Part shown: in pieces, positions 1,582-30,461 of the stretch
Numbering within the stretch: the first letter of the stretch is position 1
Layout of the letters: every line of letters begins with the position of its first letter
IMG/VR virus record: IMGVR_UViG_3300042515_002946
Location: 1 to 30,883 of that record
Reading direction: 5' to 3' (one strand)
Origin: a virus
DNA: 30,883 nt
Notes under the pieces: model-generated
The model's database searches: none
The model's input: only the letters and a program-made list of their open reading frames with translations
What the model was told of the DNA's origin: nothing
Made by a program: the position numbers and the translations under genes

Positions 1582-1582
1582 T

Positions 1583-1966: not shown

Positions 1967-1968
1967 TT

Positions 1969-2307
1969 ATGGAACTTACAAACTACGCAAAAGCAATTAA
2001 AGCCGAGATGAGTCTACAGCTCCAGAAGCAGGGCTCGAGCATTGAAAACTTCGAGAAAGCACTAAAAAGTCTAAACACCGGAGAAGGAGTGTATAAGGTT
2101 GCAGAAGATAGCGCTGGGATGCTTTTCGGCTTGCCTGAGATGGCGTTCAAGAGCAGCTTGGCTGGTGGAGCAATGGCTGGTTTGACTCTCGACGAAATGG
2201 ACAAGTCTGTAGACTCTGTGAATGGAGCTCTCGAAAGAGAAAGACAAAAGGTCAATCTGGTCAGGCGAATCACGCAAAACCTTAGAAGAGAACATGGAAT
2301 TCAATAA
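1969..2307 (+). CDS. Small unrecognised helical protein
   Basis: This 112-residue protein is predicted by eye to be largely helical and charged, with a short Gly/Ala hydrophobic stretch near residues 60-75 (KSSLAGGAMAGLTLDEM) and a basic C-terminus. I see no recognisable domain. The start has no Shine-Dalgarno sequence and follows the previous stop by 2 nt (taattATG). Two longer reverse-strand frames overlap it, but the spacing pattern with its neighbours and the same-strand context support this frame. It may belong to the same set of small virion-associated proteins. Confidence 0.6.
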   Translation: MELTNYAKAIKAEMSLQLQKQGSSIENFEKALKSLNTGEGVYKVAEDSAGMLFGLPEMAFKSSLAGGAMAGLTLDEMDKSVDSVNGALERERQKVNLVRRITQNLRREHGIQ

Positions 2308-2311
2308 GACT

Positions 2312-2674
2312 ATGGAGTTTAAAGCTACTGAGCATTTTGACTTTGGTGAAAGTTCGTTTGATCCGACATCAAGCAGTAAAAAAAGAAACATCAAAAATGA
2401 AGTAACAAACAAATCTTTTGATCCTGAAGCTGTAATAGATGCTTACGAAAAAGCAAAAGGAATCAAAAAGAGAGGTGTTGCTTCGGACATGGCCGACTAC
2501 ACGTTTAAGAATATTATCCTCGATCCTGAGCAACAAAGAGATCAAGACATGCTCAATGAGTTGTTAAACAATAAAAAGTATCTAATCGCCCTATGGAAAG
2601 ACACCTGGACAAACCAGGGAAATTTTAGAGTGTTTGTTATCTACGGATCCAAGAAAGAAAAAGCTAAAGAATAA
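2312..2674 (+). CDS. Small unrecognised hydrophilic protein
   Basis: I place the start at the ATG at 2312, giving 120 residues (MEFKATEHFDFGESSFDP...). It lies 4 nt after the preceding stop, like the gaps elsewhere in this run. An in-frame ATG at 2294 would add MEFNKT and overlap the upstream gene by 14 nt, so it remains possible. The protein is charged and lysine-rich, with no hydrophobic segment and no motif I recognise; it ends in a basic KKEKAKE tail. The next gene starts 4 nt downstream. Function is unknown, and its place in the small virion-gene cluster is the only clue. Confidence 0.6.
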   Translation: MEFKATEHFDFGESSFDPTSSSKKRNIKNEVTNKSFDPEAVIDAYEKAKGIKKRGVASDMADYTFKNIILDPEQQRDQDMLNELLNNKKYLIALWKDTWTNQGNFRVFVIYGSKKEKAKE

Positions 2675-2678
2675 AATT

Positions 2679-3440
2679 ATGTCAACTAACGAAAAAACCG
2701 CACTTACTCAGCTTCCACTGTCTCCTGACGAGCAGTATGAAGCTTCTGAACTGTTTGGGAAGAGTCTATTTAGTGCTATTCAACTAGCTAAAGAACAAGA
2801 GCTTCGTAAGAAGCTGGAAGAGAAGAAAACTTACGGAGGTGGTGACGAAGATGTGTTAAAGATACCTATCCCTATGCATCTGCTTCCAAATCACGAAAAA
2901 ATGGGAGAGGCTTCGGACGCCTACTCCGATCCAGGCATCTTGGCTAGAGCTCTAAAAAGTCAGAACTATCCTATGCGTATGCTGGTAGGAGGGCAGACTG
3001 GCTTTCGTGACGCCAAGAAAGACTATTTCATGCAAGAGAAGGCGAGGATACAGCAAGAACTCATGCTTGCTCAAAAAGAGTATATTGACACTCTATCAAA
3101 GATAAAAACAGGAGCTGAACATATCGAAACTCCATGTGTCGACGCTTTCTGTAACGGGCTAGCCTACGCTGCTCTGTTCGATAACGAAAAGGTGGCTCTA
3201 TCTTTTGACAACGATGTCGACATCGAAGATGACTCTATGAAGAGAGTAATTCAAGACGCAGCAACTACAATTAAAAAGCCTTTTTCTCCTGTTATAGATA
3301 CTGCAGCCAGCGGACTGTTGGGTACAGGAGCAGGCGCAGCGTATCTGACATATCTATTGAGAAAGAAGATGAGAGAAAAGCCGGACAGCTATCTCGACGA
3401 ACATATGCCAACCAGAGTTGAACTTCAACCCTACGCTTAA
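2679..3440 (+). CDS. Unrecognised virion-like protein with N-terminal EKTA segment
   Basis: The ATG at 2679 (leader taaaatt, 4 nt after the previous stop) gives 253 residues starting MSTNEKTALTQLP. An upstream in-frame extension would run inside the previous gene and is not favoured. Residues about 45-75 are strongly charged and probably helical or coiled coil (AKEQELRKKLEEKK). A second helical region lies near residues 120-150. A Gly/Ala-rich hydrophobic stretch near residues 207-227 (ASGLLGTGAGAAYLTYLL) could be a transmembrane helix. Two cysteines occur in TPCVDAFCNG. The family is not recognised. Its place between other small cluster genes suggests a virion or assembly role. Confidence 0.7.
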   Translation: MSTNEKTALTQLPLSPDEQYEASELFGKSLFSAIQLAKEQELRKKLEEKKTYGGGDEDVLKIPIPMHLLPNHEKMGEASDAYSDPGILARALKSQNYPMRMLVGGQTGFRDAKKDYFMQEKARIQQELMLAQKEYIDTLSKIKTGAEHIETPCVDAFCNGLAYAALFDNEKVALSFDNDVDIEDDSMKRVIQDAATTIKKPFSPVIDTAASGLLGTGAGAAYLTYLLRKKMREKPDSYLDEHMPTRVELQPYA

Positions 3441-3442
3441 AT

Positions 3443-4156
3443 ATGAAAATTGACTGGACTGCTCTTAGAGAAGGTTATGAAGAAACACTGGAAAAAACAG
3501 CAGTAGCGTACAGCCCTCCTGCTGCTCCCTCCTCGCCCGCTCCGCCTGCTGGTGGGGGTGGCGCAAAACCCATGAATCCTCCTGCTCGGAATCCTAAGCC
3601 AGGGTTTGGAACTACTTTTTGGGAGACAGCCACAAGCCCGTTTAAAGCCGTAGCTGATGGTGTTTCTAACTTTGTCGGAAAATTCAATCCAGTCACTCCG
3701 ATAACTCACGCAATCAGCGATGCTGGAGACGCACTAAAATCTGTAGCTCCTTTAGGTTTAGCTGCAGTTGCTGGTGGAGGGCTCCTTGGAGGAGGGTCCT
3801 CTGGAGGTGGAGGAGCAGGCAATAACTACGGCTCAGGAGGAGGATCGCGAGGAGATATTCTTAACTACAACAAAGCAGGGGTGTCCACTATGAATGCTCC
3901 TAAAGTTAAAGTTGGAGGATTCTTGCTCGATCCGTTGATGGCTGCTGCTGAAAGAAGAGCAGCCAACTCTGTTTTAAATGAGGTAACAAAGACCAACCCT
4001 TTCGGAGAATCAGAGGCTTCGGCAGACGCGCACACACAGCCTCATATGCATGAAAAATCTGATAAAGAAATTCAACTGGTTTCTAAATACCCTGAGCTTG
4101 CTAAGCTGCTGGAAGATGAGAAAAATAAAGCCTATCTAGCGCAGTTGACTAGCTAG
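3443..4156 (+). CDS. Pro/Gly-rich virion-like protein with N-terminal LEKTA motif
   Basis: This 237-residue protein begins MKIDWTALREGYEETLEKTA, closely echoing the start of the protein at 778. A low-complexity Pro/Ala/Ser/Gly region follows (about residues 28-55), then a helical stretch, and a long Gly-rich linker (about residues 108-140, including GGGLLGGGSSGGGG). The C-terminal ~60 residues are charged and helical. Flexible Pro/Gly linkers between a short N-terminal tag and a folded end are common in virion or internal proteins, but no family is recognised. It is the last gene before a rho-independent terminator, so the upstream plus-strand run probably ends here. Confidence 0.7.
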   Translation: MKIDWTALREGYEETLEKTAVAYSPPAAPSSPAPPAGGGGAKPMNPPARNPKPGFGTTFWETATSPFKAVADGVSNFVGKFNPVTPITHAISDAGDALKSVAPLGLAAVAGGGLLGGGSSGGGGAGNNYGSGGGSRGDILNYNKAGVSTMNAPKVKVGGFLLDPLMAAAERRAANSVLNEVTKTNPFGESEASADAHTQPHMHEKSDKEIQLVSKYPELAKLLEDEKNKAYLAQLTS

Positions 4157-4162
4157 TGTAAT

Positions 4163-4198
4163 AAGGTCTTGCTTTATACTGAGTAAGACTTTATTTTT
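4163..4198 (+). terminator. Rho-independent terminator after the small-protein cluster
   Basis: An 11-bp stem (4163-4173 with 4182-4192, two G-T wobbles) encloses an 8-nt loop and is followed by attttt. It lies just after the 3443-4156 gene and only 9 nt before the next ATG at 4207, so readthrough or a promoter inside the hairpin region would control the downstream pair. Confidence 0.7.
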
Positions 4199-4206
4199 AA
4201 TCATCT

Positions 4207-4428
4207 ATGTCCACGTCAAGCAAACAAGTATACATCCCGTCGCTAAAGATAGTTGGATCTTTTATGGAAGAAATTGGAGGTACAGCAGACCGGGTTATAT
4301 ATCCAGGCAATCCATTTTCTGTTGAACTATCCTCTGAAGATTTTAAAGATCCTGAAGAGTATCACACTGTCTGGATAGCCATAACAAAGGCCGTTAAACT
4401 AAAACTATCTAAAGATGCCTCAGAATAA
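4207..4428 (+). CDS. Small unrecognised protein preceding RNAP beta fragment
   Basis: This 73-residue protein contains alternating hydrophobic and charged segments suggestive of a small beta-rich fold (YIPSLKIVGSF, RVIYPGNPFSVELS). No family is recognised. It starts 9 nt after the terminator tail with leader tttttaatct and no Shine-Dalgarno sequence. Its last 14 nt overlap the start of the polymerase beta fragment gene at 4415, so the two are probably translationally coupled. A link with the polymerase is inferred only from this overlap. Confidence 0.65.
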   Translation: MSTSSKQVYIPSLKIVGSFMEEIGGTADRVIYPGNPFSVELSSEDFKDPEEYHTVWIAITKAVKLKLSKDASE

Positions 4429-5080
4429 TCCTCCAGCACACACCAGAGCTTTTTTCGATCCTATCAGACTTCGGGGAATGTTGTTTGATACGGCCAAGGA
4501 AGCTTTCACTAAAAAACTCAATGCTATAGAAACCCCAGACTTTAAACTGGCTGTTAAAGATCTAAAAATTGAGAGTACGCACGTCACATCTTCAGCCAAG
4601 AAGAAAGCGATCCTCGAAAAGAAAGACCTTACTGTTCCTTTAAAGGGTACGGTAGATCTCATCCACAAGGCGTCTGGTAATGTGGTGGAGTCTAAAAATA
4701 CTACCATAGCTCATATTCCGTATTTAACTAACCACAACACTGTAATATACAACGGGTCAGAGTACGAATCTGTAAACCAGCAAAGACTTCTTCCAGGAGT
4801 ATATTCCCGTATCAGACAGGACGGCATCCCTGAAGCTCATATAAATCCAGAAGCTCGCACAGGCCAGTCAGCAAGAATATTATTTCTTCCTGAAAAGCAA
4901 CTGTTTATCTTGATGGTCAAAAATTCGCAAGTGAGGTTGTACGGTATCTTAAAAGACATGGGTATAACCGACTCAGTCATCAAGGAAGCTTGGGGAGAGC
5001 AGATATACAATGCAAACAGGTTGCAGTATAAAGGAGACGAGATAGATAAGCTCTACGCACTGTTTGTTGGTCCAGATTAG
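4415..5080 (+). CDS. RNA polymerase beta subunit, N-terminal fragment
   Basis: This 221-residue protein matches the N-terminal part (protrusion and start of lobe) of the multisubunit RNA polymerase beta chain. Residues about 76-130 contain the diagnostic stretch: a beta strand GTVDLI, then IAHIPYLTNHNTVIYNGSEY and VNQQRLLPGVYSR. These parallel the bacterial IPLMT-NGTFVINGTER and SQLHRSPGVFF segments. Full beta chains exceed 1,000 residues, yet this frame ends at a stop after the segment KDMGITDSVIKEAWGEQIY. The following 150 bp do not continue the homology. A second, central beta piece is encoded on the other strand at 12239-12931. The gene therefore looks like one part of a split beta subunit rather than a random decay product, because its reading frame is intact. 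It overlaps the preceding small gene by 14 nt. The distance between the pieces is unusual. Confidence 0.8.
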   Translation: MPQNNPPAHTRAFFDPIRLRGMLFDTAKEAFTKKLNAIETPDFKLAVKDLKIESTHVTSSAKKKAILEKKDLTVPLKGTVDLIHKASGNVVESKNTTIAHIPYLTNHNTVIYNGSEYESVNQQRLLPGVYSRIRQDGIPEAHINPEARTGQSARILFLPEKQLFILMVKNSQVRLYGILKDMGITDSVIKEAWGEQIYNANRLQYKGDEIDKLYALFVGPD

Positions 5081-5143
5081 AGGCTAAGCTTCTGATAAAT
5101 TTATTTGCATACTATTAAAATATGTGCAATACTATAGGTAGCA

Positions 5144-5257
5144 ATGGAGAAGATCATCGGTCTCTCTGGAAGCCTAGCTTCTGTTGCAGCTTTTGAAGCT
5201 CCTCTGCTACTAAACAACAAACCAAATAAAAACACAATATGGCTACATATAAAGTAA
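5144..5257 (+). CDS. Possible 37-residue small peptide
   Basis: A short frame starts at ATG 5144 (MEKIIGLSGSLASVAAF...) and contains one hydrophobic segment. Its leader (tagcaATGgag) resembles that of the gene at 11725 (tagcaATGgaa). It ends 19 nt inside the next gene. Length and overlap make it doubtful, and I list it only because it is the sole frame in the 158-bp gap after the beta fragment. Confidence 0.2.
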   Translation: MEKIIGLSGSLASVAAFEAPLLLNNKPNKNTIWLHIK

Positions 5258-5673
5258 AAAAACTAGCATCAGGCGCTTCTGATATTTCCGGACTAAAGAC
5301 CTCTCGTTATGAGAAGCTTCAAGTCGCATACGGCGCCATCAGCGACACTGCATACGCGCTCAACGACACCCTCGTTTTTCACGATGTGCCGTCAAAAGAT
5401 ATCATCAGAGCTACGGTGGTCGCTCATGCGACTGTACCTATTACTCTTGAAGTCTTCCCGGCCACAAATGTCACAGGCTCACCATTCACGCTGACTCTGT
5501 CTACTGGACAAGCTGCCTGTAAGATCAGTTATGTTATTGAGTATATCCGTGGCAACGGTAAAGTCGGTATTGGAGCAGGTCCTTCGGACGGAGAGCTGTT
5601 TGCTGTAACTATCGTTGCTGGAGCGCAAGCTATCCCAGCTACAAGGGAAGAGCAGATTCCTGCTGCCTCCTAG
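5239..5673 (+). CDS. Probable small structural (beta-rich) protein
   Basis: This 144-residue protein is Ala/Val/Thr-rich, with many short alternating hydrophobic strands (ATVVAHATVPITLEVFPAT, TIVAGAQAIPAT) and only two clear charged patches. That composition is typical of capsid decoration, tail or fibre-tip proteins, but I do not recognise the family. It begins with the A-rich leader aaaaacacaatATG and no Shine-Dalgarno sequence. A strong terminator follows 28 nt after its stop, so it may be expressed as a short, abundant transcript. The structural role is inferred from composition, leader and terminator. Confidence 0.65.
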   Translation: MATYKVKKLASGASDISGLKTSRYEKLQVAYGAISDTAYALNDTLVFHDVPSKDIIRATVVAHATVPITLEVFPATNVTGSPFTLTLSTGQAACKISYVIEYIRGNGKVGIGAGPSDGELFAVTIVAGAQAIPATREEQIPAAS

Positions 5674-5701
5674 TAGTCTATCACCTAGCTACTTACAGTT
5701 T

Positions 5702-5736
5702 AAAAAGGGCGCTGTTAATTCAGCGCTCTTTTTTTT
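5702..5736 (+). terminator. Strong rho-independent terminator
   Basis: A GC-rich stem (agggcgctg pairing with cagcgctct, one G-T wobble, loop ttaatt) extends into flanking A/T pairs and ends in eight T residues. It terminates the transcript of the 5239 gene and separates it from the following fibre region. Confidence 0.9.
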
Positions 5737-5747
5737 GTACAAAACCC

Positions 5748-5776
5748 TTGCAGACCCCTTTCGTCACAGGTACTGT
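5748..5776 (+). promoter_or_regulatory. Candidate sigma70-like promoter for the fibre region
   Basis: TTGCAG at 5748-5753 and TACTGT at 5771-5776 are separated by exactly 17 bp, just after a strong terminator and about 30 nt before the likely ATG at 5806. The -35 match is good and the -10 match is partial, so this is tentative. Confidence 0.35.
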
Positions 5777-5805
5777 TATTGATGTCTGCTATAACTAACC
5801 AAAGT

Positions 5806-5973
5806 ATGAACGAACAAAAAACCTCAAAAGAAGAACAAATTTACAACCTCGTAATCGAGCTCGAGACTGCAAAAAAGAATAAGCGTGATGTAGTCAAGGC
5901 ACATACTGAAGAAGTAAAAAGAATTCAGGCAGAAATTAAAGACTTGCTTGAAGAAAATGACGCACTTAACTAA
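5806..5973 (+). CDS. Small coiled-coil protein
   Basis: I prefer the ATG at 5806 (55 residues, MNEQKTSKEEQIYN...). The in-frame ATG at 5779 would lie inside the probable promoter zone. Nearly all residues after position 10 fit charged heptad-like helix, for example IYNLVIELETAKKNKRD and VKRIQAEIKDLLEENDAL. It therefore probably forms a coiled coil. It precedes another coiled-coil protein by 8 nt. No function is recognised; small helical proteins beside fibre genes can be assembly partners, but nothing here proves it. Confidence 0.55.
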   Translation: MNEQKTSKEEQIYNLVIELETAKKNKRDVVKAHTEEVKRIQAEIKDLLEENDALN

Positions 5974-5981
5974 CAAACACT

Positions 5982-6239
5982 ATGAGCACTGATCGCGTAG
6001 AACTTCCGGCCGTTACTCCAGTAGACACTGAAAAGCAACATGTATCTCTTCTTCTGATTGCTGACGCTCTGCGTAACGCAGACTCTGTAATTTCCGAACA
6101 AGAGACTGCCATTACGAAATTGAGCCAACAACTACAGCAGCTCCAAAATAACAGGATCGCTACTGTTGCACAAAAAAACGTACTCACGTCGTTGCAGGAG
6201 AGGATTCTAGAAATCGAGAACACCAACAAGACTCAATAG
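5982..6239 (+). CDS. Small coiled-coil protein
   Basis: This 85-residue protein starts MSTDRVELPAVTPVDTEK. From about residue 22 to the end it is helical with heptad-like Leu/Ile spacing and many Gln residues (ETAITKLSQQLQQLQNN, LTSLQERILEIENT). A coiled coil is likely. It follows its similar-looking neighbour by 8 nt, and the membrane protein gene begins 1 nt after its stop. The leader aactaacaaacact is A-rich with no Shine-Dalgarno sequence. Function is not recognised. Confidence 0.6.
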   Translation: MSTDRVELPAVTPVDTEKQHVSLLLIADALRNADSVISEQETAITKLSQQLQQLQNNRIATVAQKNVLTSLQERILEIENTNKTQ

Positions 6240-6240
6240 T

Positions 6241-6576
6241 ATGCAGCTTTCTGAGATAGCCTTCGTGTGTAGTTATCTGCTTTTGATTTGGCTAAGAACC
6301 AATGCTTTTGCAGAGTACTTGACTTTGTTTAGACTCACTAGGCTCTTTAAATTAGATGAGTACAATAAACTTGCCCACGAAGGCTATCCAGGAAACTATA
6401 TTGACTTTTTAGCTGAATACTATCGCCCTCTTTTTATAGTGAGACTAGTTATATGTCCTGTATGTATTAGTTTTTGGCTAGGTGTATCCTCTCTATCTTT
6501 CCTCGCTGTAGAGGACGCTATCGCATTGGCTCCTTTGACATTGCTTTTCTATACTTTGTTTAATAAAATGCTTTAA
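6241..6576 (+). CDS. Small membrane protein with CPxC motif
   Basis: This 111-residue protein has hydrophobic segments at about residues 5-20, 63-88 and 92-108, consistent with two or three membrane helices around a polar middle. The motif RLVICPVCISFWLGV near residue 70 is a CPxC followed by SFW. This resembles small phage and bacterial membrane proteins of the DUF1360-like type (Cys-x-x-Cys-x-x-FW), though the match is by eye only. The stop and the next start overlap by one base (TAATG), so translation is probably coupled to the fibre gene. A holin or export role is conceivable but unsupported. Confidence 0.55.
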   Translation: MQLSEIAFVCSYLLLIWLRTNAFAEYLTLFRLTRLFKLDEYNKLAHEGYPGNYIDFLAEYYRPLFIVRLVICPVCISFWLGVSSLSFLAVEDAIALAPLTLLFYTLFNKML

Positions 6577-9500
6577 TGTCGAACAGCATTAATCCAGGGT
6601 CTATCCATCTAGGAGGAGATGTACCACAATACTACGCAGAGTATTTCCCTGCTTATGATTCGGTAAACAATCCGAAACCTCCTTCCTGTGCTATCCCTGA
6701 CGGTATTGAAGTAGCGGTAAGCTCTACCGAACTGCTTCCAATTAACGAAGCCTGTGTATTCCAATTTCCGGATGTTACACCCATTCCTCCGGTGTACACC
6801 CCTCCGTATATTGCTCCTCCCTCCTGTCTAAGCTTTACAGCAGAATCCAAAATAAAAGCAGTAAACGCAGCTAAAAACAGCACGTTTACTCTTACCGCTG
6901 CAGGACCCAGCAACTGCGGAGTAGTACTAGACGGACAGATTGATGTGGCTGCTTGCGAAGACTTCAAAGCCACAACGAACATAACTTTCGCTGGAGCTGC
7001 TCGTAACACAGCTACAAACAATAGCTCCATAATTATCTCGGCTGCGTCTATACCTAATTGCGGACTAGACATCTCAGGCACTATCAGTGTTGAGGCCTGT
7101 GAGACGTTCACGGCCGATACCTCGAAACTCTCCTTTTCAGGAGCCGCCGCAGGCTCCTTCATGAGTATTGTTTCAACATCCACTCCGAATTGTGGCTTTG
7201 TAATTGATGGGAATATCAACGTAGCGGCTTGTCAGTCTTTTGACGCTAACGTAGATATCAATATTTCCGGAACAGCCGTACAAAAAAGTCTGTTCAGTAT
7301 AACTCCGTCCAGTCAACCCAATTGCGGGTTTACCTTGAAAGGAGATGTTGAAATTAATGCGTGTCCCAGTTTCAGCCTTAAAGTGCTGGAAGGACGTTCT
7401 CCTAAAGTGACCGTTAAAGACTATAACGGCGTATTTTTAAGTAGCGCGACAATTACATCAGCATTAACCGTAACAGGCACCGACTGCGAAAAATTTCTAA
7501 AGCTAGATTTTACAGATATAGTGATAGATATACCCCCGGCTTCATACTTTGTTGGAGGAGGGGGAGGAAGCACAACCTTCACTATAGATCAAGACCGCAT
7601 AGACATAAAAACTATAGGAGGCGAAGCATCCAGACAATGGACTGCCCTCTCAGATGGTCCTTACCTACGTCAAACAGGAAACGAGCTGCAATTATCAGGC
7701 ACTCTGTCTCCTCCCTACTTCGGTTGCGGAGATTCGCAAACCGATGATGGCGATATGGTCTTCAGAACACTTAATCTTGAAGAACTAGATGTTACTCTGC
7801 TGAAGAAAAATAGCTGCTGCTCATTGCCATCAGAAAATGAAATAAACATATGTGATGGAAGTTTGTTCATGACCTGCTCAAACCAGGCAGATCCTAACAT
7901 AATTGACTTGTGTGCCTCTGATCCAAACGCATCAAGACCTACACTTAAATTCTCGGGAGTTGGATCAATAAGCTACATCGACGATTACTACAACACAGAT
8001 TTGCGGGCCTATCATATGCGAGTCGCTGAAGGCGGCACAAATGGAGCTCGTAATTACGCCTCTCTAGAACTAAATTATAGTGCCGGAGGCCTAGCCAGAC
8101 TCAACATACAAAACAACGCTACATATAGCACACAGCTGGCAGGGAATACCTTCTATCAAGGAGACAGTCTCTATAATTACATTCAATTTCCTGGTCCCGA
8201 CAACGACAATTCAGCATTTCGTATCGTTATACGCAACGACGACGTATTTAAGACTGTCATAACCGGAAGCAATATATACACAGGGATAGACGGTAAAAAC
8301 GCAAGCATATCTCCAGGAGATATGTGGATAAAACAATCTAACTCAAGTTATGCACGTATTAACGGAGCTAATGTATATATCACTGACGATGGAGGAACTA
8401 CGAATACAAATATTTCCCCTGGAGATATTTATGTAGTTGATTCTAACTCTGCGTTTACAAGAATTCAAAGCACCAATCTGTATCTAACCTCCGACGGAGG
8501 TACTACAAACACAAGCATCAGCCCTGCAGAGGCCTACTTCAAAAAATCTGCTACAGATTATACAAAAATTGATGGAGGTACGATATACTGTAACGCCGCT
8601 GACGGCACACAGATGTCGGTCAACTCTAACGATCTATGGCTTAAGGATAGCTCGACGTCGTACACACATCTTGATGCAAACACCATATACACCACTTCGA
8701 GCCCTTCTGAAAATTCAAGTATAACTCCAGGTAAGGCAACGATAAAAAAATCGTCAGGCTACACGGATATAGACGGAGCTACTTTATATGTTGGGAACGG
8801 AGGAGTCGGTGCAAATAACGATAGCATCAGTATAGGTATAGCTTCAGGAGCTCATGTAGAAGTAACCGATGGTACTTCAGGAGGAAAACTAAGCGGGAAT
8901 AATCTATATGTCTATTCTGGCTCAGATTCGACAACAGTAAATTCTAACCATGTATTTGTCAATAACTCTACAGGCGAAAGTACTCTAGGTGCGAGCAGTC
9001 TTACTCTCAATGATAACACAAATACAGGAGGCTACTACACCAGCAGTTTGTCTTTAACTCTAGGTTCACACTCTACAGTACTGAACACGAACAATCTGTA
9101 TATAGAAAAGGATTCTGCAGGAGCTTGTACTCTGGGTGTCAGTAGTCTGTCTCTTAGTGATGGAACAAACTCAGGCAACTATAACGTTGCTGACCTTACA
9201 GTTCGCAAAGGGACTAAGAGCGTAACCATAGATGCCGCCACTCCGTATGTTGAACTGAGCAGCGGTACAGCTAATGTCACAAAGCTGAGTTACGGAGCGC
9301 TAGCTATACATGACGGAACAAACAAAGCAGATCTTGCTCCCTCTAGTCTCACAGTTAGAGAAGGAACTAAATCCGCTGCTTATAAAGCAACAGGCATAGA
9401 TTATAACGACGCTAATTTACAGTCGCAGCTTTATGCAGGAAATCTTTGGGTAAAGACCGACAGCACAAACTACACACATATAGCAGGATCACGGATTTAC

Positions 9501-11330
9501 TCCGGCAACGGCAGCACGGCTAGTGTAGATATTTCAGGGCTGAACGGTACGGTGGAAGCAACTGCAGGTACGCTAGGAGGTAAACTGACTCCCGGCAGCC
9601 TTTCAGTCTATTCTTCTGCGTCAGTAACATCTGCTTTAACTGCAGCTTTACTAACTTTAACCTCTGGGGTAGCCTCTTCAACGCTAGGTCCCTCAAGTCT
9701 AGAACTAGGTTCCGGTACAAATAAAGGAAACTACAACATAGGTGATTTTACTATTCGAGACATTGCAGCAACAGGAAAGTACGTATCCGCTTCGGCAGGA
9801 GACCCTAGCCTGACTCTCGGAGTAGGAATCAAAACAACAAAGCTGTCGTATGGAGCTCTCAGCCTCAATGACGGCACAAATATAGCTAATTTTACACCCA
9901 AATCTATAATTCTGCGTGACGGAGCAGAATCCACAACATACGGAGTAGGGCAATTTTCAATAGCTAACGGATCAGGATCTTCTGCTACGGTCGGAGCTAC
10001 AGAGATATGGTCGAATATTTCAGGAACAAACTACACAAAAATAACAGGAGCTTCCATATATTCAGGAGACGGCTCAAACTACAGTGTAAATATTGAAGGT
10101 ACGCTAGGTAAACTGGGAGTGCAGCAAGGTGCAAATATAGGTGTCGAGACGCTTCCAACTTACCTGTTAGTTTACAATAATGGTATCGGTGCGAGTAATA
10201 CTATAAACGCCTCGTCGTCGTCCATAGTGCTCGGCTCGGCCTCCTCTTCTTTAGGACCAAGTAGTTTATCGTTAAGTACCGGGACGGATACCGGAAACTA
10301 TAATGTTTCTGATCTTACATTACGTAAAGGCACCAACACAATTACAGCCAGCGCTGACACCAAGACTTTAGAAATCAACGACACTTCAACTTCTAGTAAA
10401 TCTCTACTAAAAGGAAACAGTCTGCGATTAGAGGGATCAGGAAGCGCTAGCGATTACACAAACTCAAGCGTCACAGTAAGAGGCAGTAACAACAGGTCAG
10501 TAGCAATTAGTACCGGAACAAGTCCAAACATACTCATCTCGACAGGAACAATCTCATCTACACTAGGCACATCTAGTCTTGAGCTAGGTACAGGTACAAT
10601 TACTGGAGCAGCGAACTACAATATAGCTGACTGGACTATCCGCGCAGGACTAAACACATACATAAGTGCGGTAGCTTCTAGTACCTCAAACATCTTAATT
10701 TCCGCCTCAGGCGTATCGTCAACTCTAGGAACATTGAGTCTGCAGCTAGGAACAGGAAGCACAAACGCAGCAAGCTATAATGTTAGTGATCTGTCTATTA
10801 ATCTTGGGTCCCACTCGGCTACTCTCTCAACAAACAGTCTGTATATAGAAAAGGATTCTGCAGGAGCTTGTACTCTGGGTGTCAGTAGTCTGTCTCTTAG
10901 TGATGGAACAAACTCAGGCAACTATAACGTTGCTGACCTTACAGTTCGTAAAGGGAATAAGTATGTAACAATTGACTCTAATGCTTCTTCCTTAGCCTTA
11001 CATAATGGAGGGCAAACAGGAACATATACCAATGAGAACATTAGCCTTGCGGCTTCTGCAGGAGGCAGCATAGCCATAAACTCTTCGCTAGGTAACTTTA
11101 CCTCTAGTGTAGGCACAAAGACATCGACACTAGGTACAAGCAGCTTATCTCTGTCCGACGGAGCAAACACAGGCAATTATAACGTTTCTGATTTAACTCT
11201 AAGGTCAGGAACCAAAACAATAACGCTTGACGCAGCAAGTCTTCCTAGCAGCGCATCTTTTCAGCAAATTACAATATGTGTTAATGGTACAAACCGCACT
11301 GCCTGGGTATTAATGACAACTCCTAGCTAA
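6576..11330 (+). CDS. Long repetitive tail fibre / adhesin protein
   Basis: This 1,584-residue protein is low in charge and rich in Ser, Thr, Asn and Gly, as in phage fibres. The N-terminal part (about residues 84-265) holds four 44-48 residue modules, each with an NCG Cys and an AC Cys 13 residues later (Cys114/127, 162/175, 206/219, 250/263). The rest is built from degenerate modules of the type SSLSLSDGT-NSGNYNVADLTVRKGTK, repeated many times between about residues 560 and 1570. Another group with YTKIDG, NASISPGD and YTDIDG elements covers about 560-800. The C-terminus FQQITICVNGTNRTAWVLM resembles the end of fibres in other environmental phages. A 111-bp perfect direct repeat lies inside it. 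Receptor binding or virion surface display is the likely role. It is co-directional with the cysteine-rich gene 7 nt downstream. Confidence 0.8.
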   Translation: MSNSINPGSIHLGGDVPQYYAEYFPAYDSVNNPKPPSCAIPDGIEVAVSSTELLPINEACVFQFPDVTPIPPVYTPPYIAPPSCLSFTAESKIKAVNAAKNSTFTLTAAGPSNCGVVLDGQIDVAACEDFKATTNITFAGAARNTATNNSSIIISAASIPNCGLDISGTISVEACETFTADTSKLSFSGAAAGSFMSIVSTSTPNCGFVIDGNINVAACQSFDANVDINISGTAVQKSLFSITPSSQPNCGFTLKGDVEINACPSFSLKVLEGRSPKVTVKDYNGVFLSSATITSALTVTGTDCEKFLKLDFTDIVIDIPPASYFVGGGGGSTTFTIDQDRIDIKTIGGEASRQWTALSDGPYLRQTGNELQLSGTLSPPYFGCGDSQTDDGDMVFRTLNLEELDVTLLKKNSCCSLPSENEINICDGSLFMTCSNQADPNIIDLCASDPNASRPTLKFSGVGSISYIDDYYNTDLRAYHMRVAEGGTNGARNYASLELNYSAGGLARLNIQNNATYSTQLAGNTFYQGDSLYNYIQFPGPDNDNSAFRIVIRNDDVFKTVITGSNIYTGIDGKNASISPGDMWIKQSNSSYARINGANVYITDDGGTTNTNISPGDIYVVDSNSAFTRIQSTNLYLTSDGGTTNTSISPAEAYFKKSATDYTKIDGGTIYCNAADGTQMSVNSNDLWLKDSSTSYTHLDANTIYTTSSPSENSSITPGKATIKKSSGYTDIDGATLYVGNGGVGANNDSISIGIASGAHVEVTDGTSGGKLSGNNLYVYSGSDSTTVNSNHVFVNNSTGESTLGASSLTLNDNTNTGGYYTSSLSLTLGSHSTVLNTNNLYIEKDSAGACTLGVSSLSLSDGTNSGNYNVADLTVRKGTKSVTIDAATPYVELSSGTANVTKLSYGALAIHDGTNKADLAPSSLTVREGTKSAAYKATGIDYNDANLQSQLYAGNLWVKTDSTNYTHIAGSRIYSGNGSTASVDISGLNGTVEATAGTLGGKLTPGSLSVYSSASVTSALTAALLTLTSGVASSTLGPSSLELGSGTNKGNYNIGDFTIRDIAATGKYVSASAGDPSLTLGVGIKTTKLSYGALSLNDGTNIANFTPKSIILRDGAESTTYGVGQFSIANGSGSSATVGATEIWSNISGTNYTKITGASIYSGDGSNYSVNIEGTLGKLGVQQGANIGVETLPTYLLVYNNGIGASNTINASSSSIVLGSASSSLGPSSLSLSTGTDTGNYNVSDLTLRKGTNTITASADTKTLEINDTSTSSKSLLKGNSLRLEGSGSASDYTNSSVTVRGSNNRSVAISTGTSPNILISTGTISSTLGTSSLELGTGTITGAANYNIADWTIRAGLNTYISAVASSTSNILISASGVSSTLGTLSLQLGTGSTNAASYNVSDLSINLGSHSATLSTNSLYIEKDSAGACTLGVSSLSLSDGTNSGNYNVADLTVRKGNKYVTIDSNASSLALHNGGQTGTYTNENISLAASAGGSIAINSSLGNFTSSVGTKTSTLGTSSLSLSDGANTGNYNVSDLTLRSGTKTITLDAASLPSSASFQQITICVNGTNRTAWVLMTTPS
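9095..9205 (+). repeat. 111-bp perfect direct repeat, copy 1 (in fibre gene)
   Basis: Bases 9095-9205 are identical to 10838-10948, offset 1,743 bp (581 codons, so in frame). Flanking bases diverge at 9094/10837 and 9206/10949. The surrounding modules are only loosely similar, so the identity suggests recent gene conversion or duplication. Confidence 0.9.
10838..10948 (+). repeat. 111-bp perfect direct repeat, copy 2 (in fibre gene)
   Basis: This is the second copy of the repeat at 9095-9205. It encodes the same fibre segment, beginning LYIEKDSAGACTLGVSSL and ending in NVADLTVR. Recombination between the copies would delete or duplicate 581 codons without a frameshift. Confidence 0.9.
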
Positions 11331-11337
11331 TAATAAT

Positions 11338-11706
11338 ATGTCTTGGTTATTTCCTGTAATACAAGGTACAGAGTGTAAATGTAATTGTCCGGCGCAACGC
11401 TGTGATGACAAATGTGCCACAAACTATGACCCGTCAGGTACTGCTCCTCCATGCTCCGACAAGTCATGTTGCTCGTATCCAACTGATCCTGTTCGAGGTT
11501 GCACCGACCCTACAGCATCCAATTACAATGAATGTGCTACAATAGATGACAACTCATGCAAATCAGGATCGCGGTGTCCTGCTCCCGAGTGCTGTCCTGG
11601 AGAAACAGGCACCGGTTGCGGACAATGCTCGAACGGTCAACCGTGTTGTATTTGTGGCTCCGGCCAAGCCCCTGTAGGTCCTAATTGCGCTTGCGTCTTC
11701 GTTTAA
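11338..11706 (+). CDS. Cysteine-rich small protein with GCTDPxASNYN motif
   Basis: Of 122 residues, 21 are cysteine (about 17%), including several CC and CxC pairs (CKCNC, ECCPG, PCCICG). The segment GCTDPTASNYNECATIDDNS matches the widespread GCTDPxAxNYxxxAxxDDGSC type repeat found in secreted surface proteins of Bacteroidota and in environmental phage proteins. A weaker earlier copy is CATNYDPSGTAPPCSDKSC. There is no obvious signal peptide; the N-terminus MSWLFPVIQG is only weakly hydrophobic. The gene lies 7 nt after the fibre stop, suggesting a fibre-associated or disulfide/metal-stabilised virion component. The function is inferred. Confidence 0.65.
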   Translation: MSWLFPVIQGTECKCNCPAQRCDDKCATNYDPSGTAPPCSDKSCCSYPTDPVRGCTDPTASNYNECATIDDNSCKSGSRCPAPECCPGETGTGCGQCSNGQPCCICGSGQAPVGPNCACVFV

Positions 11707-11724
11707 AGTTAATAATATGTAGCA

Positions 11725-12261
11725 ATGGAAGAAGAATTGACCAAATATGAAAAGCTTGAGGTTGTAATGTACGCCATGACCTTGACTGAGCGTGCCGATA
11801 AACGTGACCTTTGGCTAAACAAAGGGGCGTTTGCTCGCGTACATAGTCGAGGACCTCGAGCATTGTTTGACTACTGGAAGGCGCGACTGGATTCTGATCC
11901 TTTGGTAGAAGATTTGCTAAACACTACCTGGGCTAGATTTGTTGCTGAGACAGAAAATCCACCCGCGACCGCCAAGAGCATTTCGGTACAGCCAAATAAA
12001 GTATCTGCGTTAACAAAAGCAAAAACACTACTACAGGCAGTAAAAAATTTTACAGCAAGCGGGTTCGTTTTTGCTAGTGACGAAGTGTATAATCAAAGAC
12101 TAGCTATTTGCAAATCTTGTGAGTTTTGGGACGCTGCTTCTTTTGTCAATACCGGCAGCTGTACTTTGTGTGGGTGCTCTACAAAAGCTAAACTAAAGCT
12201 GCCTCTGGAAAAATGTCCTGCAGATAAATGGCTCCCTGTTAGTGTTCAGGAACATCAATAG
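11725..12261 (+). CDS. Zinc-ribbon protein of unknown function
   Basis: This 178-residue protein has a helical, charged N-terminal part (about residues 1-75), a linker, and a C-terminal cysteine cluster from about residue 128: CKSCEFWD, then CTLCGC, then EKCPADKW. The pattern CxxC-(~14)-CxxCGC...CPxxKW is a zinc-ribbon-like signature seen in many environmental phage proteins (DUF6171-like by eye). A nucleic-acid or protein-binding role is plausible but not shown. The start has the leader aatatgtagca with no Shine-Dalgarno sequence. Its 3' end overlaps by 23 bp with the converging minus-strand polymerase fragment gene. Confidence 0.65.
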   Translation: MEEELTKYEKLEVVMYAMTLTERADKRDLWLNKGAFARVHSRGPRALFDYWKARLDSDPLVEDLLNTTWARFVAETENPPATAKSISVQPNKVSALTKAKTLLQAVKNFTASGFVFASDEVYNQRLAICKSCEFWDAASFVNTGSCTLCGCSTKAKLKLPLEKCPADKWLPVSVQEHQ

Positions 12262-12931
12262 TAGAGCTTAAAAATTCCTGATGGTCTATCCATACGGCTT
12301 TGCCTGTACTGTTATCTATTACTTTGCGATAGATTTTTCCGTCGCTTCCTTTGCGTGCGTTATTCACAAAGAAGTTTACAACTCCGATTGTAGTAGCCTC
12401 TACGGTTTGAATGGGATCAAGTAATCCAAACTGACTCTCATTCACTTCTCGAGAACTATCTGGAATAGCTTCACTAGATCCTATTCCTCCCATACCCATC
12501 TTGGTCACTTTGTGAGCAAGCATATACTGCTCCATAGGATTTACTCCCTCGATATTCTGAGCCAGCGAGTTCCCGACAAACACACTCTTCACCTGAGGAC
12601 TAAAAAACCCTCCATGCAGCCACGAAAGATTCCTTTTTTGTCTTAGCTTGTTTTTAGCTTTTAGTTGAATCTTGCCTGCGTCATGTTCGATATGTTCTTT
12701 TATAAAATCCTCAGGACCTAAAAATTTCGAAAAGACTACGTTATCACGATCATCAGGCTCCTCTTGTCTTCCGTACACTCTAAGAAGCTTTTGAGAAGCA
12801 TTCAGCACAAGGAGAGGACTTAGAGAAGTCGTCGTCAGCCCGAGAGTCCTGCCCATGACGCTAGCATCGAGTTTCATGTTTCTAAAACTCTCTTTAAGTT
12901 TAGTTATTTTTTCTTGTTTACTTAGAGCCAT
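12239..12931 (-). CDS. RNA polymerase beta subunit, central (fork / rifampicin-pocket) fragment
   Basis: This 230-residue protein is a second piece of polymerase beta. Residues 58-64 (EPDDRDN) parallel bacterial DDIDHLGNR. Residues 111-149 align without gaps to the E. coli rifampicin region: VKSVFVGNSLAQ, NPMEQYM, HKVTKMGMGG (E. coli VKEFFGSSQLSQ, NPLSEIT, RRISALGPGG). Then come DPIQTVEATTIGV (CPIETPEGPNIGL) and KIYRKV (ETPYRKV). It starts at a clean ATG with leader tataaactaat and ends soon after HQEFLSSTID, well short of the hybrid-binding and flap regions. The first ~60 residues may continue where the 4415-5080 fragment stops. It lies on the strand opposite to that fragment, about 7 kb away. 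The remaining beta and all of beta-prime would have to be outside the window. Confidence 0.85.
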   Translation of the reverse strand: MALSKQEKITKLKESFRNMKLDASVMGRTLGLTTTSLSPLLVLNASQKLLRVYGRQEEPDDRDNVVFSKFLGPEDFIKEHIEHDAGKIQLKAKNKLRQKRNLSWLHGGFFSPQVKSVFVGNSLAQNIEGVNPMEQYMLAHKVTKMGMGGIGSSEAIPDSSREVNESQFGLLDPIQTVEATTIGVVNFFVNNARKGSDGKIYRKVIDNSTGKAVWIDHQEFLSSTIDVPEH

Positions 12932-12977
12932 ATTAGTTTATAGTAATGTATATCTGACAAAAAAACAACAGAAAGAG

Positions 12978-13166
12978 ATGAGATTTGAATTTGACTACGA
13001 TACAGAAGCAGAGCAAATAACTATCGTCTATGATGGAGTTTTCACTTTGACTGTTGATTATGATGGGGAGAAATTAATTTTCAAGAATTTTGATAGAGTT
13101 GAAGACGACGAGATTGAGAAGATCTTGAAAACCCTTTGTCGTGCAGCCTTCGATGTGTTAGGTTAG
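12978..13166 (+). CDS. Small acidic protein
   Basis: I place the start at ATG 12978 (62 residues, MRFEFDYDTEAEQ...), because longer in-frame extensions run through the divergent promoter region and into the opposite gene. The protein is strongly acidic. It has an apparent beta hairpin (ITIVYDGVFTLTVDYDGEKL) and a C-terminal helix (EIEKILKTLCRAAFDVL). It may be a small regulator or DNA mimic, but this is speculation. The next gene starts 6 nt downstream. The leader aacagaaagag is purine-rich and is one of the few here that could act as a Shine-Dalgarno sequence. Confidence 0.55.
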   Translation: MRFEFDYDTEAEQITIVYDGVFTLTVDYDGEKLIFKNFDRVEDDEIEKILKTLCRAAFDVLG

Positions 13167-13172
13167 CCGACC

Positions 13173-13625
13173 ATGAATCCTACAGAAAGAACACGTCCCG
13201 ACTGGGATCAGTACGGGCTTTTACTTGCTTATGCCGCAGCTCAAAGATCTCCTGATCCTTATGTGCAAGTGGGAGCTGCAGCATTTAAGTCAGACCACTC
13301 AACAATAGGTACCGGATACAATGGAACTCCGGCTGGAGTTGAAATAGACTGGTCAGACAGAGATAAGCGACGGCCTTTTGTGGATCATGCTGAATACAAC
13401 TGTCTGAGATATACAAAACAGGGAGAGCCTCACTATCTTTACGTAACTCTATCTCCATGTACGGAGTGCTTAAAGCTGGCAGCAGCTCACGGAGTTAAAG
13501 AAATAATCTACAGTGAACTATATGGCAGAGATCAAGCAGCCTTGCATCTAGCCAGCAGTTTAAATATAAATGTAAGGCAACTAGACAGCTCATATGCGCA
13601 CCTCTTTAAACCACACTCCGTTTGA
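13173..13625 (+). CDS. Deoxycytidylate (dCMP) deaminase family protein
   Basis: This 150-residue protein carries the cytidine/dCMP deaminase zinc-site signature. HAE lies at residues 72-74 (VDHAEYNCLRY), with the proton-shuttle Glu74. SPCTEC lies at residues 95-99, giving zinc ligands His72, Cys96 and Cys99. The N-terminus WDQYGLLLAYAAAQRS, then VGAAAF and GTGYNGTP, matches the dCMP deaminase subfamily, which makes dUMP for thymidylate synthesis. Length fits the family. It lies between a small acidic gene and the amidase-like gene, and upstream of a ribonucleotide reductase, so a role in phage dNTP supply is likely. The next gene overlaps its 3' end by 32 nt. Confidence 0.9.
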   Translation: MNPTERTRPDWDQYGLLLAYAAAQRSPDPYVQVGAAAFKSDHSTIGTGYNGTPAGVEIDWSDRDKRRPFVDHAEYNCLRYTKQGEPHYLYVTLSPCTECLKLAAAHGVKEIIYSELYGRDQAALHLASSLNINVRQLDSSYAHLFKPHSV

Positions 13626-14362: not shown

Positions 14363-16213
14363 ATGAGCAAGGAATTCCTAAGCAAACTCGTACACTACCG
14401 CACATACGCAAAATATCTTCCTGAAGAGCTTCGCAGAGAGTCTAAAGAGGAGACTATAAATAGGAATATGCAGATGCATATCCGGAAGTTTCCTGAGCAT
14501 GCAGAAGCTATTGAAAAAGCATACGAGCAGGTTTTTGCCGGTAGGGTAGTTCCCAGCATGCGCAGCTTCCAGTTCGCTGGCGAAGCAATTGAGCGTCGCA
14601 ATAATCGAATGTTTAATTGCAGTTTCCTAAACATCACAAAGTTTAGAGATTTTGCAGACCTATTCTACATGAGCATGAGCGGTGTAGGTGTCGGCTTCAG
14701 CGTCAAAAAGAAACACATCTCTTCTCTAGGAGCTATTCCCGAAGGCGCTGTGGTCCCTCCCTATGTTGTGGCTGACTCGGCAGAGGGTTGGTGCGATAGC
14801 TTGCTGGAACTTTTCCGCAACCCTGATCTGCAGTTCGACTATACTCCCATTCGTCCTATGGGTGCTCCTTTGAGTACAGGAGGGACAGCTAGTGGTCCGA
14901 AAGCTCTAATCAAGATGCATGCGAATGTCCGTGCAATTTTGAGGAAGGCTGTCGGACGGCAACTCACCCCTTTCGAATGTCATCGCGTTGCCTGTTTGAT
15001 TGCCGATTGCGTTGTTGTCGGAGGCGTTCGTAGAGGAGCACTGATTAGTCTGTTCGATGTGGATGATGAAGAACTTCTGAACTGCAAAGCAAACAACTGG
15101 TGGGAAAAATATCCTGAGCTTGCTCGTGCAAATAACTCCGCTGTTCTACGCAAAGACGATCCAGACTTTAGAGAAAAAGCAGGCAGGGTAATTGATGCTT
15201 GTTTTGCTGGCGGTCAGGCAGAGCCTGGCCTGAGTCTCACCAACGATGATGAGATGGGATTCAATCCTTGTCACGAGATTGCACTCAAGAGTATGGGTGT
15301 CTGCAACCTTACAGAAATTAATGCCGCTCAATGCTTCAGCAAAGAAGATTGGCTGAAGGCTGTTGTTAGTGCGACTATTCTAGGAACACTACAAGCAACC
15401 TATACAGACTTTAAATATGTGCAGCCTGAGTGGAAAAAGAACGCAGACGAAGAAGCGTTGCTAGGGGTGAGCATCACAGGACAAGCTGAAGCTCAAGCCA
15501 TTTTGACTCCAGAAAACCTTAAAGAAGGTGCAGAGGTAGCAGTTCAGGTAAACAAGCTCTGGGCGCAAAAGCTGGGAATCAACCCTGCTCGCCGAATAAC
15601 TACCACAAAACCTTCAGGAACCAGCAGCAGCTGGCTAGGAACAACTGCAGGTGTACATGCAGGACATGAGATTCGTTATGTGCGTCGTGTACGTATGGAT
15701 AAGTTTAGCGCGCTGGCTAAAGCTTTAGCCAAGAAATTCCCTGCTTTTGTTGCAGAAGATCCATTCAACAGCAACGACATGATCATGCAGGTTCCTATCA
15801 AACTGTATGACACCACACTCCTCAGAAGCCAGGAAACCGCTGTGCAGTGTTTGGAGCGCGTGAAAGTATTGTATGACAGCTGGATTGTTCCAGGGCACAT
15901 TGTTGGAGACAATACCCACAACATCAGTCTAACCATAAACTACCACGAGCATGAAAAAGAAGCGATCAAGCGCTGGATGCTAGATAACAGAGATTCATAT
16001 TATGGTATCAGCCTCATTCCATATGACGGCGGAGACTATAAATACCTGCCCTACAGCCAGCCTCCACATCCTGAAATTTTTGAAATTTTAGAGAAGGCTT
16101 TTTCTCTCGTCACCGACGAGTTCAAATTTGAAGATATTCGTGAAAGAAAAGATAACACTGACTTCAAAGGAGAGATTGCTTGTGCAGGAGGAGCCTGTAG
16201 CTTAGAGCTGTAG
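14363..16213 (+). CDS. nrdJ: Adenosylcobalamin-dependent (class II) ribonucleoside-triphosphate reductase
   Basis: This 616-residue protein reduces ribonucleotides to deoxyribonucleotides using adenosylcobalamin. The family's catalytic cysteines are present. NPCHE is at residues 301-305 (thiyl Cys303 and Glu305). Cys314 lies in MGVCNLTEIN, 11 residues on as in the Lactobacillus enzyme (C408/C419). Cys86 lies in MFNCSF, and the C-terminal shuttle pair Cys607/Cys612 in CAGGACSLEL matches the CX4C of that enzyme. Other family motifs are GVGFSV, RPMGAPLS-GGTASGP, GGVRRGALISLF and TTTKPSGTSS. It is shorter than the ~740-residue monomeric reference, mostly before Cys303. The product would be dNTP, or dNDP if it is a diphosphate form. 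A PduO-type adenosyltransferase at 16859 could supply the cofactor. It is followed by a strong terminator, and an A-rich leader (aacaaacaaaaATG) precedes the start. Confidence 0.93.
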   Translation: MSKEFLSKLVHYRTYAKYLPEELRRESKEETINRNMQMHIRKFPEHAEAIEKAYEQVFAGRVVPSMRSFQFAGEAIERRNNRMFNCSFLNITKFRDFADLFYMSMSGVGVGFSVKKKHISSLGAIPEGAVVPPYVVADSAEGWCDSLLELFRNPDLQFDYTPIRPMGAPLSTGGTASGPKALIKMHANVRAILRKAVGRQLTPFECHRVACLIADCVVVGGVRRGALISLFDVDDEELLNCKANNWWEKYPELARANNSAVLRKDDPDFREKAGRVIDACFAGGQAEPGLSLTNDDEMGFNPCHEIALKSMGVCNLTEINAAQCFSKEDWLKAVVSATILGTLQATYTDFKYVQPEWKKNADEEALLGVSITGQAEAQAILTPENLKEGAEVAVQVNKLWAQKLGINPARRITTTKPSGTSSSWLGTTAGVHAGHEIRYVRRVRMDKFSALAKALAKKFPAFVAEDPFNSNDMIMQVPIKLYDTTLLRSQETAVQCLERVKVLYDSWIVPGHIVGDNTHNISLTINYHEHEKEAIKRWMLDNRDSYYGISLIPYDGGDYKYLPYSQPPHPEIFEILEKAFSLVTDEFKFEDIRERKDNTDFKGEIACAGGACSLEL

Positions 16214-24234: not shown

Positions 24235-24236
24235 AA

Positions 24237-25049: not shown

Positions 25050-25050
25050 A

Positions 25051-25845: not shown

Positions 25846-25848
25846 GGC

Positions 25849-28394: not shown

Positions 28395-28395
28395 A

Positions 28396-28833: not shown

Positions 28834-28890
28834 GCATCAGTATCTCCGAAGTTAAAAATACTTTGTTTTTTTGCTCATAATCTCTGTTAA

Positions 28891-28919: not shown

Positions 28920-28933
28920 TTTAATTTAACCTG

Positions 28934-30458: not shown

Positions 30459-30461
30459 AAA

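What the first reader, a model, noticed from the sequence alone, without database searches (positions are those of the whole stretch)
4415..12931. RNA polymerase beta chain split into two genes on opposite strands
The 221-residue product at 4415-5080 shows the beta N-terminus (protrusion, VIYNGSEY...LLPGVYSR). The 230-residue product at 12239-12931 (minus) shows the central fork/rifampicin-pocket region (NPMEQYM...HKVTKMGMGG, DPIQTVEA). They are separate intact frames, in opposite orientation, with fibre and cysteine genes between. The second piece may begin where the first ends. The remaining beta and beta-prime would be outside the window. Split polymerases are known in giant phages of the phiKZ type; this particular division plus strand inversion looks unusual, and I do not know of a description of it.
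Basis: partly seen in the sequence, partly recalled or inferred. Interest (0 to 1): 0.85.

Follow-up and report, generated by a model that had tools for sequence, protein, structure and literature searches.

The report
Phage RNA polymerase scattered in pieces
A group of large phages known from metagenomes encodes its RNA polymerase as four separate proteins, with the beta chain cut in three and its first piece flipped to the other DNA strand, and relatives with longer uncut chains suggest that the cuts happened during phage evolution.

Summary
Confirmed and extended. The 221-aa and 230-aa genes are the N-terminal and middle parts of RNA polymerase beta, intact and on opposite strands. They are two of four parts. 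A contig 100% identical to window 1-22925 runs past the window's start and holds the third (rest of beta FUSED to the N half of beta-prime, ~1000 aa, minus strand) and the start of the fourth (C half of beta-prime). The three beta-bearing genes tile the single 1525-aa chain of Salmonella phage Arash end to end (cuts ~228|229, 470|471). In all 23 records (window included) where both are seen, betaN and betaM are on opposite strands. One polymerase is found per record; active-site aspartates and lysines are kept; protein change is low against saturated silent change. In a tree rooted on a bacterial enzyme the clade nests among relatives with contiguous chains, so these cuts look derived. That bears on the published view that split phage polymerases are pre-LUCA relics. 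Split phage polymerases are known (phiKZ, AR9); in the open-licence papers searched I saw none with these cut sites, the betaC-beta'N fusion and the inversion. Assembly into one enzyme is inferred. Verdict: new variant of a known kind.

The parts
4415..5080 (+). betaN: N-terminal part of RNA polymerase beta (to about E. coli beta residue 228); equals residues ~1-228 of Salmonella phage Arash gp206
   Evidence: frame; tiling on gp206; profile 76-200 = E. coli beta 96-228; model pLDDT 85, the 50 Foldseek rows shown all RNA polymerase entries (TM-score 0.40 over the model)
12239..12931 (-). betaM: middle part of beta (fork and rifampicin-pocket region, about E. coli 386-607, the start extrapolated); equals gp206 ~229-470
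   Evidence: PF04565 E 2.7e-5; profile 35-215 = E. coli beta 420-607; betaM alone models poorly (pLDDT 57)
4207..4428 (+). 73-aa frame that overlaps the start of betaN by 14 bases; no Shine-Dalgarno-like motif was seen before betaN, so translational coupling is possible (inference)
   Evidence: coordinates; upstream sequences

Best explanation
The two genes encode two of the four polypeptides of one phage DNA-dependent RNA polymerase of the two-barrel (beta/beta-prime) type: betaN, betaM, a betaC-beta'N fusion that carries both catalytic barrels, and beta'C. The set derives from a contiguous beta-beta'N chain like Arash gp206 by two gene fissions in beta, plus an inversion (or transposition to the other strand) of betaN. 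The pieces are translated separately and assemble without a peptide link, as phiKZ and AR9 polymerase pieces do. SHOWN: homology, end-to-end tiling, orientation, conservation, single copy in the records searched, kept catalytic residues, nesting among contiguous relatives in a rooted tree. INFERRED: that the four chains form one active enzyme, that translation is separate without splicing, and the order of fissions. NOT KNOWN: when in infection it acts, whether it is packaged in the virion, and what recognises promoters.
For: betaN, betaM and betaC-beta'N fall on gp206 1-228, 229-470 and 471-1525 in 9 of 9 genomes with all three read (three of the nine cut at 227|228). Rpb2_6 (12 of 12 records) and Rpb1_2 (11 of 12) lie in one ~1000-aa frame; beta'C is a separate ~620-aa frame in 11 of 12 records, the twelfth being a fragment that ends in the fusion gene. 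betaN opposite betaM in 22 of 22 records with both in one locus, window included, and in one more by coordinates; betaN opposite betaC in 14 of 14. In 36 records of the clade no frame joins betaN with betaM or betaM with betaC. Window clade is one branch, bootstrap/SH-aLRT 100/100, nested among contiguous-chain lineages when rooted on a bacterial beta/beta'. In 25 gene comparisons over 7 genome pairs dN is 0.056-0.219 while dS is 2.08 or more, or saturated. Aspartate triad in 15 of 16 window-type contigs read, both lysines in 16 of 16. betaN and betaM open with ATG in 11 of 11 genomes. No Rfam match at E<=1 in window 3900-13600. A 184-kb contig with a 207-bp end overlap (one mismatch), thus probably near complete though classed linear, shows one copy of each piece.
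Against: No expression, proteomic or biochemical data. betaM alone does not give a confident model (pLDDT 57, pTM 0.33, no Foldseek hit at E<=0.001, best an RNA polymerase at E 0.16), which fits a partner-dependent fragment but proves nothing. betaN's TM-score to RpoB chains is only about 0.40 over the whole model. dS is saturated, so dN/dS has no exact value. The tree's root depends on one long bacterial branch (about 3 changes per column). Sigma region 2 passes its cut-off in only 2 of 13 records, with weaker matches (E<=0.1) in 4 more, so promoter recognition is unexplained.
Confidence: 0.87

Rival explanations
1. The pieces are rejoined: by trans-splicing of RNA (split group I/II introns) or by split inteins, so that a normal long chain is made.
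For: The family is rich in such elements: a group I intron in the beta gene of Vibrio phage D181 (931-bp insert after codon 514 of the D69 gene, RF00028) and one at the same profile position in the contig of L124/L189; intein matches in L184, L190, L196; an intein-like insert spread over two frames inside the catalytic loop of window-type contig G021.
Against: No Rfam match at E<=1 around the window genes. The fragments end and begin within a few residues of the homologous cut, with no intein-length tails. betaN and betaM open with ATG in 11 of 11 genomes.
Confidence: 0.06
2. The split is primordial: phage polymerases were always multi-piece, and contiguous chains arose by fusion (the view of Iyer et al. 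2021 for phiKZ-type enzymes).
For: Published argument for group 1 jumbo phages (PMC7824862, passages). The tree's root rests on one long branch.
Against: Bacterial beta is contiguous at both cut sites (record), and among the non-window-type loci that cover both joints only L196 is cut at the first joint and none at the second; the window clade lies inside them with 100/99 and 98/95 support at the two forks below it. L196 has betaN separate on the SAME strand with two other frames between, and an AU test rejects one clade of L196 with the window type (p 0.0009, long-branch caution), so separation at this joint may have happened twice.
Confidence: 0.05
3. The fragments are decaying remnants of a lost polymerase.
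For: Fragments of a conserved gene scattered on both strands.
Against: betaM is an open frame of 231-294 aa (stop to stop) in 32 of 34 records, the other two being cut by contig ends; some records are near copies of each other. dN is low against saturated dS; all parts and catalytic residues are present.
Confidence: 0.01
4. Assembly artefact.
For: Metagenome-derived contig.
Against: Same relative orientation in 23 of 23 records with both genes, from many metagenome numbers, down to ~46% identity in betaM.
Confidence: 0.005

Closest known systems
Salmonella phage Arash gp206 + gp216; Vibrio phage D69 _0261 + _0264 (beta-beta'N fusion | beta'C); D148 and D181 also match (D181 interrupted by a group I intron)
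   Same: Same polymerase family; same beta-beta'N fusion and separate beta'C; a gp218 / D69_0266 homologue lies downstream of beta'C.
   Different: Their beta is one chain with beta'N (1525 and 1527 aa), not cut in three; all on one strand. About 25-34% identity to the window-type pieces.
phiKZ/AR9-type jumbo-phage virion and non-virion RNA polymerases
   Same: Beta and beta-prime made as several separate polypeptides without alpha or omega; beta-prime cut after the catalytic barrel (PMC7598289, passages).
   Different: Two enzymes per phage there, one found here; their beta C part and beta' N part are separate chains, here they are fused; beta cut sites differ. That review gives two beta pieces; Iyer et al. 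give three for the virion enzyme, cut as N | barrel | C-extension (PMC7824862, passages), not N | fork | barrel-plus-beta'N.
mReC RNA polymerases (Weinheimer & Aylward 2020)
   Same: Metagenomic tailed phages with beta/beta' enzymes found by profile search (PMC7481178).
   Different: Their filter asked for both matches of at least 800 aa and the NADxDGD motif. None of the 15 window-type motifs read has NADxDGD, so I infer that such enzymes were filtered out. The held main text has no occurrence of 'split'.
Archaeal B subunit and cyanobacterial/plastid rpoC1/rpoC2 splits
   Same: Stable fission of a conserved polymerase subunit (recalled; named in PMC7598289 passages).
   Different: Other cut sites; no fusion across the beta/beta' border in the same chain (recalled, not tested).

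Membership tests
Two-barrel multisubunit RNA polymerase | DxDGD aspartate triad in beta' | tested here: met
   GYGGDSDGDQLNV in the contig identical to the window; triad in 15 of 16 window-type contigs read; in the 16th (G021) the loop is interrupted by an intein-like insert
Two-barrel multisubunit RNA polymerase | two catalytic lysines of the beta barrel | tested here: met
   DK...AKGV in 16 of 16 window-type contigs
Two-barrel multisubunit RNA polymerase | beta'C with Rpb1_5 | tested here: met
   PF04998 over cut-off in 11 of 12 records; partial gene of the window's species E 1.4e-13
Two-barrel multisubunit RNA polymerase | transcribes DNA | not testable with these tools
   -
phiKZ/AR9-type jumbo-phage polymerase | two polymerases (virion and non-virion) per phage | tested here: not met
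   one Rpb2_6 match in 12 of 12 records, one Rpb2_3 in 13 of 13, Rpb1_2 in one frame in 11 of 12; records may be incomplete and a very divergent second copy could be missed
phiKZ/AR9-type jumbo-phage polymerase | betaC and beta'N as separate chains | tested here: not met
   19 of 22 frames with betaC or beta'N hold both; the other three are two frames cut by locus ends and the second frame of G021
phiKZ/AR9-type jumbo-phage polymerase | beta' cut after the catalytic barrel | tested here: met
   the beta'N frame ends ~85 residues after the triad (A2), beta'C is separate
Arash-type beta-beta'N | beta'C polymerase | beta contiguous and fused to beta'N | tested here: not met
   beta cut at gp206 ~228|229 and 470|471; only the last part is fused
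Arash-type beta-beta'N | beta'C polymerase | beta'C separate, gp218-like gene downstream | tested here: met
mReC polymerases | NADxDGD motif and beta, beta' matches of at least 800 aa (the authors' filter) | tested here: not met
   motif differs in 15 of 15 read; criteria; placement in the authors' own tree not tested
Trans-spliced gene (introns or split inteins) at the betaN/betaM/betaC joints | intron or intein halves at the fragment ends | tested here: not met
   no Rfam match at E<=1 in window 3900-13600; no extra tails at the cut sites

The most novel reading that the evidence does not exclude
Phage multisubunit polymerases of this family are not relics but are being broken up repeatedly: the same enzyme occurs as one, two, three, four and, in G021, five reading frames, through insertion of introns, inteins and genes, and scattering betaN and betaM to opposed operons makes assembly of active polymerase depend on both transcription programmes being on, a built-in coincidence switch. 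In G021 an intein split after ~13 residues would rebuild the catalytic loop itself by protein trans-splicing.
Probability: 0.15. Interest if true: 0.88.

Novelty: new variant of a known kind. Interest (0 to 1): 0.72.

Why it matters
Whether the many-piece polymerases of giant phages are relics of the pre-LUCA world or were cut from longer chains is disputed in print (PMC7824862 passages argue relics; PMC7598289 passages mention intron-driven splitting). This family has contiguous, intron-bearing, intein-bearing, partly split and fully split members on one tree, so the question can be tested on it. It also gives natural cut points for building split polymerases and suggests that beta tolerates separation of its N-terminal part and its fork from the barrel.

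Tried and rejected
Pfam PF04563 (Rpb2_1) on the window gave nothing; the profile misses these divergent N-termini, so this was not counted as absence. RecA tandem constructs on top of the betaN phmmer list were rejected as summed 5-bit repeats. Structure of betaM alone failed. A genome-contig scan with the betaM alignment found no relative (86 pattern matches, none confirmed), so no host hint. An upstream word search over 292 frames gave mainly A/T-rich words, no clear promoter motif. The group I intron site of D181 (gp206 residue 517) was considered as the origin of the betaM|betaC cut (470|471) and rejected: 46 residues apart. The insert of L184 near the betaN/betaM joint was considered as a former intein at the cut site; intein models hit elsewhere in L184, so this is not claimed. 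In the first tree rows L112 and L114 carried a wrong label; they are window-type. Eight rows (L112, L114, G020, L191, D181, L193, L126, L148; short or near copies) were left out of the second tree.
Full report
OBSERVATION. The window is a 30,883-base IMG/VR virus fragment. The two frames are real and are parts of RNA polymerase beta: PF04565 for 12239-12931, phmmer to RpoB (weak for the first), and family profiles that match RpoB chains in the PDB table with best E 1.8e-12 for the first and 1.5e-20 for the second. They map to E. coli beta up to about residue 228 and to ~386-607 (420-607 aligned). The 50 Foldseek rows shown for the predicted betaN fold are all RNA polymerase entries (pLDDT 85; TM-score about 0.40 over the whole model). 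betaM alone is not confidently folded.

THE REST OF THE ENZYME. Relatives were found in IMG/VR (5 loci with betaN, 23 with betaM). In 12 related records the C part of beta (Rpb2_6, 12 of 12) and the N part of beta-prime (Rpb1_2, 11 of 12) sit in one ~1000-aa frame, and the C part of beta-prime is a separate ~620-aa frame (11 of 12); the record lacking the last two is a 44.7-kb fragment that ends in the fusion gene. A contig 100% identical to window 1-22925 runs past the window's start and holds, on the minus strand, the fusion gene (window-equivalent about -2455 to -5460) and the start of beta'C (about -6983 to -8503, cut by the contig end). So the window's own phage has the set.

TILING. Salmonella phage Arash gp206 (1525 aa) and Vibrio phage D69 _0261 (1527 aa) are single chains of whole beta plus beta'N, with a separate beta'C downstream. 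Aligned to gp206, betaN ends at 228, betaM runs 229-470, betaC-beta'N starts at 471 (three of nine genomes cut at 227|228). Nothing is missing and no intein-sized tail is present. The E. coli mapping implies that the family lacks most of the bacterial lobe between betaN and betaM (inference).

CONSERVATION. Over 36 records of the clade, window included (34 with betaM), no frame joins betaN with betaM or betaM with betaC. betaN and betaM are on opposite strands in 22 of 22 records with both in one locus, and in one more by coordinates; betaN and betaC in 14 of 14. Some records are near copies (the window and 3300044647_002964 are identical where compared). The clade reaches 46-50% identity in betaM. 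In 25 gene comparisons over 7 genome pairs dN is 0.056-0.219 and dS 2.08 or more, or saturated, so selection against protein change is clear but dN/dS has no exact value. PF04565 occurs once in 13 of 13 records, always in the betaM frame, so a second or complete beta was not found. One 184-kb contig has a 207-bp end overlap with one mismatch, so it is probably near complete although IMG/VR classes it as linear; one of each piece was seen in it.

CATALYTIC PARTS. The aspartate triad is kept in 15 of 16 window-type contigs read and both lysines in 16 of 16. The motif reads G(A/G)D(S/C/N)DGD in 14 and AYDLDGD in one (G013), never NADxDGD; in G021 the loop is interrupted.

EVOLUTION. Profile searches of stop-to-stop frames show, in one family: single beta-beta' chains of ~1985-2611 aa; beta-beta'N | beta'C (Arash type); beta plus the start of beta' | beta'N2 | beta'C; Arash-type genes with a group I intron at one site (D181 after codon 514 of the D69 gene; L124/L189, one contig); chains with intein matches (L184, L190, L196) or an inorganic pyrophosphatase domain (L200); L196 with betaN separate on the same strand, two other frames between; and the window type. 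In a 53-row IQ-TREE rooted on a bacterial beta/beta' the window clade has 100/100 support, is sister to L196+L184 (100/99), then to L185/L190/L200 (98/95). An AU test rejects window type + L196 without L184 (p 0.0009), so betaN may have come loose twice; both are long branches, so caution. Bacterial beta being contiguous, the two cuts are derived under parsimony. The order betaC-beta'N, beta'C, gp218-like is shared with Arash, which suggests that betaC kept the ancestral neighbourhood and betaN and betaM left it.

MECHANISM. Most likely four chains fold together into one polymerase, as the pieces of phiKZ and AR9 enzymes do (PMC7598289 and PMC9209446, passages). No intron or intein halves were found at the cuts. 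Which transcription phase it serves, and whether it is packaged, is open; sigma region 2 passes its cut-off in 2 of 13 records, with weaker matches in 4 more.

KNOWN OR NEW. Split phage polymerases are known. Papers seen: PMC7481178 (abstract, parts 1 and 3 of 6 of the main section, passages), PMC7598289, PMC7824862, PMC9209446, PMC13282480 (passages only). In the listings (open-licence PMC only) and in those passages I saw no description of this split; subscription papers were not searched. PMC7824862 states that phage pieces were not derived by splitting; this family argues against that for its own members, and does not settle the phiKZ case.

Noticed in passing
L233 (G021, IMGVR_UViG_3300030508_000015); L241-L244: The window-type fusion gene is broken inside the catalytic loop: frame 1 ends after GYGAD plus 13 residues, frame 2 (579 aa, with intein-splicing and LAGLIDADG matches) resumes at SDGDQLNV. 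The break is identical in all four contigs found with it; they may be one population. beta'C follows as a further frame with an insert. Candidate intein split very close to its N end, or a disrupted intein.
   Followed up: partly
L200:8483-13402: Phage beta-beta'N chain with an inorganic pyrophosphatase domain (PF18823, E 2e-31) inserted in beta.
   Followed up: partly
L122, L123, L125, L126, L128, L130, L165, L186, L192, L199: Phage frames of ~1985-2611 aa carrying beta and beta-prime profiles in one chain, some with further large inserts; L122 is cut by its contig end.
   Followed up: partly
L089 736-943 and 4533-4813: Two group I introns in Vibrio phage D181, one in the polymerase gene and one just upstream of the putative portal gene.
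   Followed up: partly
window 14363-16213 and 16859-17398: A frame with B12-type ribonucleotide reductase matches (just below or below the Pfam cut-offs) close to a clear cobalamin adenosyltransferase (PF01923, E 2.7e-40): the phage may make its own reductase cofactor.
   Followed up: no
window 778-4156: Several frames next to betaN carry a K-x-A motif (EKQA, DKEA, EKTA) near the N-terminus: 8 of 36 window frames against 1.7 expected by shuffling, with a motif chosen after looking. Perhaps a virion targeting or cleavage signal.
   Followed up: partly
window 9090-9218 and 10833-10961: A 129-bp near-identical repeat inside the 1584-aa fibre-like gene.
   Followed up: no
downstream of beta'C, e.g. 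L068:8716-10926: A protein related to Arash gp218 / D69_0266 (729-763 aa where complete) lies downstream of beta'C in G001-G010 and G015, and further downstream in L185, L190, L200; the one copy scanned has no Pfam match. Possible extra polymerase subunit.
   Followed up: no
window 21535-30740: A long minus-strand run of frames that look like sugar-transfer genes to me (not tested; one scanned, 25849-26910, has no Pfam match) with a methyltransferase at 28934-29515 (PF13578).
   Followed up: no
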